Source: Bacilli bacterium
GTDB taxonomy: Bacteria; Bacillota_I; Bacilli_A; RF39; UBA660
Direction of reading: 5' to 3'
Assembly (NCBI GenBank): GCA_017541325.1
Contig: JAFXZI010000011.1
Coordinates: 1 to 52,786 of the forward strand
Length of the DNA: 52,786 bases
The translations under genes were made by a program, and so were the position numbers. Below, one piece after another: positions 15,050 to 18,805 of the stretch (position 1 is the stretch's first letter; each line of letters begins with the position of its first letter). Below the pieces are notes generated by a model. That model was not told where the DNA came from and did no database searches. It worked only from the letters and a program-made list of their open reading frames with translations.

Positions 15050-15454
15050 CTATTTTTCGTCCATTTTTATATAAAAATAGGTATTTGTTGTCTTCGCTAC
15101 TAAAACATTGTTACTATCATATACATTAACCGTGAATACAGATATTTTACTTCCTGCCTTATCAATTGTTGCGACTGCCTTTGCTGAATTTGTTTTTAAA
15201 GGCTTTAAATAACTAATAGTAGAATCAACAGTTAGAGCAGTTCCATTAACAGCAGCAAGAACCCCAGCAGTTGTATCTGCAAGTCCAAATATATATCCTC
15301 CATGAGCCATTCCATAAGGATTCATACTTGTTTCTGTTATAGTAGCTTCTAAAACGCACTCATCATCTGTTAAACTAACTAATCTATAATTATTATTTTT
15401 AATAAAACCTTCTACTTCATCAAATCTTCTTTTAGCATCATTAAAATCGACCAT
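15050..15454 (-). CDS. Hotdog-fold thioesterase, PaaI type
   Basis: 134 residues. NPYGMAHGGYIFGLADTTAG is the hotdog helix of PaaI/YdiI-like acyl-CoA thioesterases, with HGG and the following Asp as the active-site region. TVDSTISYLKPLK and KISVFTVNVYD are later strands. It hydrolyses some acyl-CoA in the cytosol; the substrate is unknown. It is the last gene of the gpx-ohrR-trxA-trxB-CDF operon, 5 bases after the transporter gene. Confidence 0.8.
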   Translation of the reverse strand: MVDFNDAKRRFDEVEGFIKNNNYRLVSLTDDECVLEATITETSMNPYGMAHGGYIFGLADTTAGVLAAVNGTALTVDSTISYLKPLKTNSAKAVATIDKAGSKISVFTVNVYDSNNVLVAKTTNTYFYIKMDEK

Positions 15455-15459
15455 ATTAC

Positions 15460-16560
15460 CTACCTATCTGAATAATCACTATCAATATTACAATAAATAA
15501 TATAGTTAGGATATAATTCTTTCATTTTATTTAAAACTTCTTCTTTAATTTGATTTCTATCATCTGCTTCGAAAGAAATAATCAAATCGAATGTTATTTT
15601 ATTATCATACATATAAAAACCATGTAATTCTAAAATATCTTTGTACTCTTTAATTATTTTCTTTAATTTTTCTTTGGCAGTTTTTGCATTTTTATCACTA
15701 CTATTATTTGCATATATTCCAACAGTTAAAATAATACCTAGTTTTTCAAATACTTTAGATTCTATCTTTTTAGATAAAGTATGAATTTCACTAGCTTTCA
15801 TATTATCATCAACTTGAATGTGAATTGATCCTATCATATTGTTTGTTCCATAACTATGAAGAATTAAGTCATATGCACCTTCTACATCATCATAAGAAGT
15901 TACAATTTCTTTAACTTTCTTTGTAATTGAAGAATCAATTCTTTCTCCAATTATTTCACTTAAAGTATCTTTTAATATTTCATAACTAGATTTAATTATT
16001 AAAATTGAAATAACTAAACCTAAATAACCTTCTAAAGATATATTAAATAATATACTTATTATTGCTGCAACAAAAGTTGAAAAAGAAATTATTGCATCAA
16101 ACAAAGCATCAGTTCCAGATGCAATTAAATTAGTAGAGTTATATTTTTCTCCTTTGTTTTTTACAAAGTTTCCAAGAAATAACTTAACTATAACGGCAAC
16201 AAATACAATAATTAAAGACACTGTTGTATAGTTTGCTGGTTCAGAATCTAGGATTTTAGAAACTGATTCTTTAAAAGATGTTATACCAGCAATAAATATT
16301 AAAAATGCAATAACTATGGCTGATATATATTCAATTCTTCCATGTCCATATGGATGTTCTTTATCTGGTGCTTTACTAGCTATTTTAGTTCCTATAATAG
16401 TAATAATAGATGATAAAGCATCACTTAAGTTATTAATTGCATCAAGTACAATAGCAATAGAATTAACTATTAATCCAACTGTTGCTTTAAATGCAACAAG
16501 AATTAAGTTAACTAATATTCCTATAATACTTGTTTTTATTATTTCACGTTCTCTTTTCAT
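15460..16560 (-). CDS. Cation diffusion facilitator (CDF) efflux transporter
   Basis: 366 residues with six transmembrane helices in the first ~210 and a cytosolic ferredoxin-like domain afterwards. Metal positions are in TM2 (DAINNLSDALSS) and TM5 (SGTDALFDAIIS, a DxxxD pattern), with HPYGHGRIEY in the cytosolic loop. CDFs export Zn, Mn, Fe or Co by proton exchange. The DxxxD in TM5 hints at Mn or Fe instead of Zn, which would suit a peroxide-stress operon, but this is inference. Its ATG overlaps the trxB stop by 4 bases (ATGA). Confidence 0.88.
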   Translation of the reverse strand: MKREREIIKTSIIGILVNLILVAFKATVGLIVNSIAIVLDAINNLSDALSSIITIIGTKIASKAPDKEHPYGHGRIEYISAIVIAFLIFIAGITSFKESVSKILDSEPANYTTVSLIIVFVAVIVKLFLGNFVKNKGEKYNSTNLIASGTDALFDAIISFSTFVAAIISILFNISLEGYLGLVISILIIKSSYEILKDTLSEIIGERIDSSITKKVKEIVTSYDDVEGAYDLILHSYGTNNMIGSIHIQVDDNMKASEIHTLSKKIESKVFEKLGIILTVGIYANNSSDKNAKTAKEKLKKIIKEYKDILELHGFYMYDNKITFDLIISFEADDRNQIKEEVLNKMKELYPNYIIYCNIDSDYSDR

Positions 16561-17445: not shown

Positions 17446-17742
17446 TTATTTAATTAAACTTTCTAGTTCGTCTTTTGTTTTAACTCCAATAGAACGACCT
17501 ATTTCTTCTCCATTTTCAAATACTAAAACACAAGGAATACCACTAATACCATAACTTTCAGCTAAATCCATATTATCATCTACATTAACTTTAAATACAG
17601 AACTATTTTCTCCTATTTCTTCAATAATTGGACTTAACATTTTACATGGTCCACACCATTCTGCCCAAAAATCAACTAACACTTTTCCTTTTACATTCTT
17701 TATCTCTTCATTAAAATTATCTTGATTTAATTCTTTTACCAT
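17446..17742 (-). CDS. trxA: Thioredoxin
   Basis: 98 residues with FWAEWCGPCKMLSP, the WCGPC redox centre, and the cis-Pro loop GIPCVLVF. It reduces protein disulfides and probably recycles the glutathione-peroxidase-like Gpx in the same operon. An AGAAGGAG site precedes the ATG. An extra Cys in GIPCV is uncommon. Confidence 0.95.
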   Translation of the reverse strand: MVKELNQDNFNEEIKNVKGKVLVDFWAEWCGPCKMLSPIIEEIGENSSVFKVNVDDNMDLAESYGISGIPCVLVFENGEEIGRSIGVKTKDELESLIK

Positions 17743-17744
17743 AA

Positions 17745-18185
17745 TTATTCTCCTTCTACGTTCCTTAATATTTTATATAATATTTTGTATAAAAATACAA
17801 CTTCTTCTTGATCAAGTTTAATACAATTTCCCATTTCTTCTGGTACATATAATGCATCATCTCTAAGTTTTAATCCTGATTCTGTAATTTTTACTTTAAG
17901 TACTCTTTCATCAGTAGAATCTCTATCTCTTGTAATATAACCTTTTTGTTCTAATTTTTTTAATAAAGGAGTTAAAGTACCCGAATCTAAATATAGGAAT
18001 TCACCTAATTCTTTTACACTTAAACTTTCCTTATCCCATAAAACCATCATCGCAATATATTGAGTATAAGTTAAATCTAACTTATCTAACAACGGTTTGT
18101 ATTTTCTTATTATTTCTTTAGAACAAGCATATAATGGAAAACATAATTGGTTTTCTAATTTTAAAGATTCATATTTATTATTCAT
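17745..18185 (-). CDS. ohrR: OhrR-type MarR regulator of peroxide response
   Basis: 146 residues and a winged helix-turn-helix. LENQLCFPLYACS carries the reactive Cys15 at the same position as in Bacillus subtilis OhrR. LTYTQYIAMMVLW and LYLDSGTLTPLLKKLEQKGYI form the DNA-binding domain, and DERVLKVKITE the wing. OhrR represses organic-hydroperoxide defence until Cys15 is oxidised. A perfect inverted repeat at 18741-18755 upstream of gpx fits the OhrR box, implying autorepression. Its ATG shares one base with the gpx stop. Confidence 0.88.
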   Translation of the reverse strand: MNNKYESLKLENQLCFPLYACSKEIIRKYKPLLDKLDLTYTQYIAMMVLWDKESLSVKELGEFLYLDSGTLTPLLKKLEQKGYITRDRDSTDERVLKVKITESGLKLRDDALYVPEEMGNCIKLDQEEVVFLYKILYKILRNVEGE

Positions 18186-18718
18186 TATAATACTTTCTCT
18201 ATTTCTTTTTCGATATCAGATGGTTCAACGATAGGTTCAAATCTTCCAACTACATTTCCTTCTCTATCAATTAAGAATTTAGTAAAATTCCATCTAATAT
18301 CATTATCTTTTGCATGAGATATTTTTTCTACTGCTTTCATAGTTGCACGATTTTTTAAACCATTTACTTTTTTATATGGTTGTTCATTTTTTATATATTT
18401 CCATAAAGAATCAGCATCTTCTCCATTTACTAAAACCTTTTTAAATCTTTTAAAAGTTGTATTATATTTTAAAGTACAAAATTCATGTATTTCAGCATCA
18501 GTACCACTAGCTTGATTAGCAAATTGATTACAAGGAAAATCTAATATCTCAAATCCTTGATCTCTATACTTATCATACATTTTTTGAAGTCCTTCATATT
18601 GTGGAGTAAATCCACATCCAGTTGCAGTATTTACAATTAATAAAACCTTTCCTTTATAATCTTTTAAAGATACTTCATTATCTTTATTATCTTTTACTTT
18701 TAAATCATATAATTTCAT
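18185..18718 (-). CDS. Glutathione-peroxidase-family thiol peroxidase
   Basis: 177 residues. The catalytic tetrad is visible: Cys35 in NTATGCGFTPQY (a Cys, not selenocysteine), Gln65 in PCNQF, Trp143 and Asn144 in RWNFTKF. Bacterial Cys-forms usually take electrons from thioredoxin; trxA and trxB lie in the same operon, which supports this. It should remove organic hydroperoxides and H2O2. First gene of the OhrR operon, with AGGAG 5 bases before the ATG. Known names for the family are bsaA and gpo. Confidence 0.9.
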   Translation of the reverse strand: MKLYDLKVKDNKDNEVSLKDYKGKVLLIVNTATGCGFTPQYEGLQKMYDKYRDQGFEILDFPCNQFANQASGTDAEIHEFCTLKYNTTFKRFKKVLVNGEDADSLWKYIKNEQPYKKVNGLKNRATMKAVEKISHAKDNDIRWNFTKFLIDREGNVVGRFEPIVEPSDIEKEIEKVL

Positions 18719-18740: not shown

Positions 18741-18755
18741 TACAATTTAATTGTA
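18741..18755. promoter_or_regulatory. Predicted OhrR operator
   Basis: TACAATTTAATTGTA, a perfect 7+1+7 inverted repeat. It resembles the repeated TACAATT-AATTGTA sites of Bacillus OhrR (established knowledge). It covers the -10 box of the gpx promoter, so bound OhrR would block initiation. Confidence 0.8.
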
Positions 18756-18777
18756 TCATATATTTTCCTTTAGTCAA
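18750..18777 (-). promoter_or_regulatory. Promoter of the gpx-ohrR-trx operon
   Basis: -35 TTGACT (18772-18777), 16-base spacer, -10 TACAAT (18750-18755), which is one arm of the OhrR operator. Confidence 0.7.
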
Positions 18778-18778
18778 T

Positions 18779-18805
18779 AAAAAAGGATTACTCTTCAAGC
18801 AATCC
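18779..18805 (-). terminator. Intrinsic terminator after the phosphodiester glycosidase gene
   Basis: GGATTGC/GTAATCC stem (one G-U pair) with a 7-base loop and six T. It lies immediately upstream of the gpx -35. Confidence 0.7.

What the first reader, a model, noticed from the sequence alone, without database searches (positions are those of the whole stretch)
18741..18777. Perfect OhrR operator covering the promoter of a six-gene peroxide-defence operon
Seen: TACAATTTAATTGTA, a perfect 15-base inverted repeat, covers the -10 of a promoter (TTGACT, 16 bases, TACAAT). The operon downstream is gpx, ohrR (with Cys15), trxA, trxB, a cation exporter and a hotdog thioesterase. Known: Bacillus OhrR binds TACAATT-AATTGTA type sites and controls ohrA. 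Inference: here OhrR controls a glutathione-peroxidase/thioredoxin chain, a metal exporter and a thioesterase in one unit, instead of ohrA. The complete reducing chain under OhrR is an unusual and testable regulon.
Basis: partly seen in the sequence, partly recalled or inferred. Interest (0 to 1): 0.7.

Follow-up and report, generated by a model that had tools for sequence, protein, structure and literature searches.

The report
OhrR-controlled peroxidase–thioredoxin operon
A small-genome bacterium appears to use a known peroxide-sensing repressor, on a textbook binding site, to switch on a complete peroxide-destroying chain (peroxidase, thioredoxin and thioredoxin reductase) instead of the enzyme that repressor usually controls; the parts are known, the combination is a new variant that recurs in uncultured relatives.

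Summary
TACAATTTAATTGTA at 18741-18755 is a perfect Bacillus-type OhrR box whose first six bases, read on the minus strand, are the -10 of the promoter of a tightly packed six-gene unit: gpx, ohrR, trxA, trxB, CDF exporter, hotdog thioesterase. It is the only perfect copy in the 1.25-Mb genome. Of 145 genomes of the same family, 12 keep ohrR. All 12 have gpx beside it, 11 have trxB and 10 have trxA, and 7 have the box with at most one mismatch over the -10 of gpx. In 190 kb of this DNA, sites that good occur nowhere else. Promoters of gpx genes without ohrR lack such a site. No OsmC/Ohr protein was found in any of the 145 genomes, and Gpx is the only AhpC/TSA-family match in this one. Best reading: OhrR, perhaps 2-Cys, represses a thioredoxin-dependent peroxidase operon that also encodes the likely reductant of OhrR itself. 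OhrR-type control of gpx has a precedent (OspR). The thioredoxin system inside the regulon, the absence of ohrA and a recurrent CDF exporter are the new parts. Exporter and thioesterase are lineage-specific. No binding or expression data exist.

The parts
18741..18755 (.). OhrR box, perfect dyad TACAATTNAATTGTA
   Evidence: identical to the B. subtilis consensus quoted in PMC6034001; conserved in relatives
18750..18777 (-). promoter: -35 TTGACT (18777-18772), 16-base spacer, -10 TACAAT (18755-18750) lying inside the OhrR box
   Evidence: same arrangement seen in relatives
18785..18805 (-). terminator-like hairpin with T tract ending the upstream NAGPA-domain gene, isolating the operon promoter
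   Evidence: 4 terminator-like sites found in the region against 0.7 expected
18185..18718 (-). gpx: Cys-type glutathione-peroxidase-family enzyme with peroxidatic Cys35 and a second Cys at about position 80 (EIHEFC); likely thioredoxin-dependent
   Evidence: PF00255 E 2e-38; aligned with yeast HYR1/Gpx3 3cmi, including its DEIAQFC cysteine; both cysteines in all 12 family Gpx
17745..18185 (-). ohrR: MarR-family OhrR repressor, Cys15, Tyr29, Tyr40, second Cys121
17446..17742 (-). trxA: thioredoxin, WCGPC
   Evidence: TIGR01068 above cut-off; only close trxA of the genome
16557..17444 (-). trxB: thioredoxin reductase, CATC
   Evidence: TIGR01292 above cut-off; a second trxB (48% identity) lies on contig C1
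15460..16560 (-). cation diffusion facilitator with NxxxD (TM2) and DxxxD (TM5) metal site
   Evidence: substrate not established
15050..15454 (-). hotdog (4HBT) thioesterase-family protein
   Evidence: found only in this genome among the relatives examined

Best explanation
The six genes form one transcription unit repressed by its own second gene product. Reduced OhrR dimer sits on TACAATTNAATTGTA and blocks RNA polymerase by covering the -10. An organic peroxide oxidises Cys15, probably followed by a disulfide with Cys121 of the other subunit (2-Cys type), and OhrR leaves the DNA. The operon then makes a two-cysteine Gpx that reduces peroxides with electrons from NADPH via TrxB and TrxA. 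The same TrxA/TrxB probably also reduces OhrR, which rebinds and shuts the operon off once peroxide is gone. The exporter (perhaps Mn or Fe rather than Zn) and the thioesterase are lineage-specific additions under the same switch. Shown here: site, gene order, conservation of site with ohrR, absence of OsmC/Ohr, conserved cysteines. Inferred: binding, oxidation chemistry, Trx-dependence, reset loop and metal. The confidence given is for the core (OhrR represses this operon through this box); the reset loop is rated separately in the section on the most novel reading.
For: The box equals the published B. subtilis OhrR consensus (PMC6034001). OhrR is closest to B. subtilis OhrR, whose operator complex is solved as 1z9c. 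gpx and ohrR co-occur in 145 genomes: 12/12 ohrR genomes have gpx against 8/133 others, Fisher P 1e-12. The gene cluster is retained in shuffled order. The box over the -10 is enriched upstream of gpx in ohrR genomes (0/1000 shuffles reach the summed score), and all 7 sites with at most 1 mismatch in 190 kb are gpx promoters. gpx promoters without ohrR have 3-5 mismatches. No OsmC in 145 genomes while the control rings in 12 of 14. Gpx is the sole AhpC/TSA-family match in the genome. Gpx keeps both cysteines. OhrR Cys121 is in 12/12 family members and a Cys lies in the same stretch in 71/73 wider OhrRs. C. violaceum OhrR is reduced by TrxA/TrxB in vitro (PMC3469484).
Against: No binding, expression or redox data exist. 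Four of the 12 relatives have a shifted dyad (centred on TTTGTATACAAA or close to it) rather than a good 15-mer. A genome of the same genus (G057) has neither ohrR nor gpx, so the operon is patchy. A second trxB exists elsewhere, so the operon's TrxB is not the only one. Cys121 aligns one residue away from Xanthomonas Cys127 in the ungapped alignment, so the 2-Cys chemistry is unproven. Several relatives carry a second, abutting half-matching site, whereas only one good site is present here.
Confidence: 0.85

Rival explanations
1. OhrR and the box control only the first genes (gpx-ohrR); trxA, trxB, CDF and thioesterase are transcribed also or mainly from internal promoters and merely sit downstream.
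For: Gene order varies and the downstream genes differ between relatives; promoter-like sequences are found throughout this AT-rich DNA at the chance rate; L018 has gpx-ohrR without trx genes.
Against: Genes overlap or are at most 5 bases apart, no terminator-like site lies between the genes (one weak 5-bp stem lies inside CDF at 16122-16106), and trxB and trxA stay in the cluster in 11/12 and 10/12 relatives, often between gpx and ohrR.
Confidence: 0.12
2. A 1-Cys mechanism as in B. subtilis: Cys15 is oxidised and trapped as a mixed disulfide with a small thiol, and the operon's thioredoxin system serves Gpx only, not OhrR.
For: Highest sequence similarity is to the 1-Cys B. subtilis OhrR; Cys121 is offset by one residue from Xc Cys127.
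Against: A second Cys in the same stretch of nearly all OhrRs of this group (12/12; 71/73), a position where B. subtilis OhrR has no Cys; no glutamate-cysteine ligase family PF04262 in this genome (other small thiols not tested).
Confidence: 0.3
3. The palindrome is a chance AT-rich dyad, or the site of an unrelated factor.
For: The window is 26% G+C, and matches with up to 3 mismatches are at chance level.
Against: Conservation at the same promoter position in relatives, dependence on ohrR presence, and identity to the known consensus.
Confidence: 0.03

Closest known systems
Bacillus subtilis OhrR - ohrA (1z91/1z9c)
   Same: Same regulator family (about 50% identity in the structural alignment), same 15-bp box, Cys15
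   Different: Target is gpx-trxA-trxB instead of ohrA, and no OsmC-family protein is in the genome; here an extra Cys121; the regulator lies inside the operon it controls
Pseudomonas aeruginosa gpx-ospR (PMC4999210)
   Same: OhrR-family regulator adjacent to and repressing gpx, induced by organic peroxides; two cysteines (C24, C134)
   Different: That genome also has ohr-ohrR; no trxA-trxB or exporter in the unit in the passages read; different box
Staphylococcus epidermidis AbfR (Liu et al. 2013, cited in PMC12090800; a link to gpxA-2 is from memory)
   Same: OhrR/MgrA-type Cys regulator of oxidative stress in a Gram-positive
   Different: Different regulon and biology; text of the primary paper not held here
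Chromobacterium violaceum OhrR (PMC3469484)
   Same: OhrR reduced by thioredoxin/thioredoxin reductase in vitro
   Different: There the thioredoxin genes are not described as part of the OhrR operon; the target is ohrA

Membership tests
OhrR (MarR superfamily peroxide repressor) | MarR winged helix with closest similarity to characterised OhrRs | tested here: met
   PF01047 above cut-off; best PDB match 1z91/1z9c. NCBIfam NF052638 (OhrR) hit 181 bits, just under its cut-off of 200
OhrR (MarR superfamily peroxide repressor) | Peroxidatic Cys15 with Tyr29 and Tyr40 | tested here: met
   Present in the window protein; both Tyr invariant in 12; Cys15 in 11 of 12 (L024 has Ser)
OhrR (MarR superfamily peroxide repressor) | AATT-N-AATT-type inverted repeat at the target promoter | tested here: met
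OhrR (MarR superfamily peroxide repressor) | Peroxide-reversible DNA binding | not testable with these tools
   needs gel shift
OhrR-ohrA system | Ohr/OsmC-family peroxidase as target | tested here: not met
   No PF02566 in the own genome or in any of 145 family genomes, control positive
2-Cys OhrR subfamily (Xanthomonas type) | Second redox Cys equivalent to Cys127 | tested here: inconclusive
   Cys121 conserved but one column off Xc Cys127 in the ungapped alignment
Thioredoxin-dependent Gpx (atypical 2-Cys) | Peroxidatic Cys plus resolving Cys in the EI..FC segment | tested here: met
   thioredoxin-dependent activity itself not testable
Mn-type CDF exporter | No His in the TM2/TM5 metal site | tested here: inconclusive
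   NxxxD/DxxxD in all five CDFs of OhrR clusters; PMC10932157 links NxxxD in ZnT10 to Mn, but ZnT10 has HxxxD in TM5

The most novel reading that the evidence does not exclude
A self-resetting OhrR switch: a 2-Cys OhrR whose own operon supplies the thioredoxin system that re-reduces it, replacing ohrA entirely by a Trx-dependent Gpx as the cell's only thiol peroxidase, and recruiting a Mn/Fe exporter to the same switch in several lineages of gut anaerobes.
Probability: 0.45. Interest if true: 0.6.

Novelty: new variant of a known kind. Interest (0 to 1): 0.42.

Why it matters
PMC3469484 leaves open whether thioredoxin reduces OhrR in vivo. An operon that places ohrR, trxA and trxB under one OhrR box makes that question directly testable. 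It also gives a predicted peroxide regulon for uncultured bacteria that lack ohrA, and warns that finding OhrR in a genome does not imply Ohr.

Tried and rejected
Second chromosomal targets: the only near-perfect extra box is inside a coding region, and the reversed-pattern control gives as many matches, so no wider regulon is claimed. A link between the recognition-helix residue (DSG/DSS) and the operator type is seen in the family (4 against 8) but could not be confirmed in the wider set, where nearly all are DSG. The AbfR primary paper is not held. No paper in the held library holds both OhrR and Lachnospiraceae, and the two that mention both OhrR and MntE do not suggest such a regulon by title and abstract start. 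Ohr/OsmC beside the 80 wider OhrR loci was not tested. The wider neighbour survey lost ohrR in some loci to overlap filtering, so counts are quoted. My automatic promoter picker chose other hexamers in L017 and L020; there the alignment over the box was read by eye.

Full report
Observation. TACAATTTAATTGTA is at 18741-18755 and is a perfect dyad of two 7-base arms around one base. Read on the minus strand, its left arm supplies the -10 hexamer of TTGACT-16-TACAAT, which lies just before gpx. The upstream gene ends in a terminator-like hairpin at 18805-18785, so the promoter starts a separate unit. In the whole genome the box has one perfect copy. The single copy with one mismatch lies inside an aldo/keto-reductase reading frame. 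Base composition alone predicts about 0.14 perfect copies per genome, and no shuffle of the promoter region gave one. Matches with up to three mismatches are chance.

Genes. The unit is gpx (PF00255), ohrR (MarR), trxA (TIGR01068), trxB (TIGR01292), a cation diffusion facilitator (PF01545/ZT_dimer) and a 4HBT hotdog protein. The genes overlap or are at most 5 bases apart. OhrR carries Cys15, Tyr29 and Tyr40. Its closest solved relative is B. subtilis OhrR, including the operator complex 1z9c, both by sequence profile and by the predicted fold. The published B. subtilis box is TACAATTNAATTGTA (PMC6034001).

Of 145 genomes of the same family (the window's own, one more of its genus, the rest from other genera), 12 carry this OhrR and 20 carry gpx. 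All 12 ohrR genomes have gpx in the same cluster, 11 have trxB and 10 have trxA, in more than one order; for ohrR and gpx, Fisher P is about 1e-12. Counting the window, seven of the 12 gpx promoters have the box with at most one mismatch and two more with two mismatches, and the box overlies the -10. In 190 kb of DNA (the window and the stretches fetched around the 11 other operons), every site with at most one mismatch is a gpx promoter. Six gpx promoters from genomes without ohrR have only 3-5-mismatch matches. Their summed score is still slightly better than shuffles (9 of 1000 reach it), probably because the box contains a -10-like word and because one of them (L042) resembles a decayed site. 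The predicted refutation therefore did not occur.

Variant operators. Four relatives (L016, L020, L024, L025) have instead a dyad around TTTGTATACAAA (TTTGCATACAAA in L025) just after the -10, and their OhrRs share DSS in place of DSG in the recognition helix. L020 is intermediate, with a two-mismatch 15-mer as well. This suggests co-change of regulator and operator, but is only four against eight.

What the operon is for. OsmC/Ohr proteins were not found in this genome or in any of the 145. Gpx is the only AhpC/TSA-family match in this genome; one rubrerythrin exists. PF04262 glutamate-cysteine ligase is absent (this family marks only some glutathione makers). Gpx has Cys35 and the second cysteine in EIHEFC, which aligns with the DEIAQFC cysteine of yeast Gpx3/HYR1; both are kept in all 12 family Gpx. 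From established knowledge of such enzymes, this is the form that uses thioredoxin. The genome has no close second trxA but a second trxB. The encoded chain NADPH-TrxB-TrxA-Gpx is therefore complete inside the operon.

Switch chemistry. OhrR Cys121 is invariant in the 12 family members, and a cysteine lies in the same stretch in 71 of 73 wider homologues; B. subtilis OhrR has no cysteine there. It aligns one residue from the resolving Cys127 of Xanthomonas OhrR, so a 2-Cys mechanism is likely but not shown. C. violaceum OhrR is reduced by TrxA/TrxB in vitro, and its authors call the in vivo role open (PMC3469484). Here the candidate reductants would be under OhrR's own control, which would make an automatic off-switch. 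This is inference.

Wider distribution. A genome scan returned at least 590 related OhrR loci. Of the best 80, mostly Lachnospiraceae and other gut or rumen bins, 30 have gpx within the fetched DNA, 18 trxA and 14 trxB. One bin labelled Saccharibacteria (L122) has gpx-ohrR-trxA-trxB-CDF in the window's order. The exporter recurs in L023, L099, L104 and L122, always with NxxxD and DxxxD motifs, which hints at Mn or Fe rather than Zn but is not decisive. The thioesterase was not found in the 11 other family clusters nor in the 80 wider loci.

Verdict. OhrR-family control of gpx is already known from P. aeruginosa (PMC4999210). The new part is the complete thioredoxin system in the regulon with no ohrA in the genome, and the recurrent exporter. 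This is a new variant of a known kind, of moderate interest and easy to test.

Noticed in passing
L016, L020, L024, L025 (gpx promoters): A different dyad (TTTGTATACAAA core) replaces or joins the 15-bp OhrR box in relatives whose OhrR has DSS instead of DSG in the recognition helix.
   Followed up: partly
L024:2327-2767 and L114: OhrR homologues with Ser in place of Cys15, still beside gpx; these could not sense peroxide by the usual route.
   Followed up: no
L023, L099, L104, L122 and window 15460-16560: CDF exporters with NxxxD/DxxxD metal sites recur inside gpx-ohrR clusters of distant lineages.
   Followed up: partly
L016, L017, L019, L020, L022, L025: A short-chain dehydrogenase (adh_short) ends the gpx-ohrR cluster in at least six family members, in the place where the window has the exporter and thioesterase.
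   Followed up: partly
L037 (G039): gpx without ohrR carries an in-frame TAG; possible pseudogene or assembly error.
   Followed up: no
G057 (same genus as the window): No ohrR and no gpx found, so the operon is patchy even within the genus (gain or loss).
   Followed up: no
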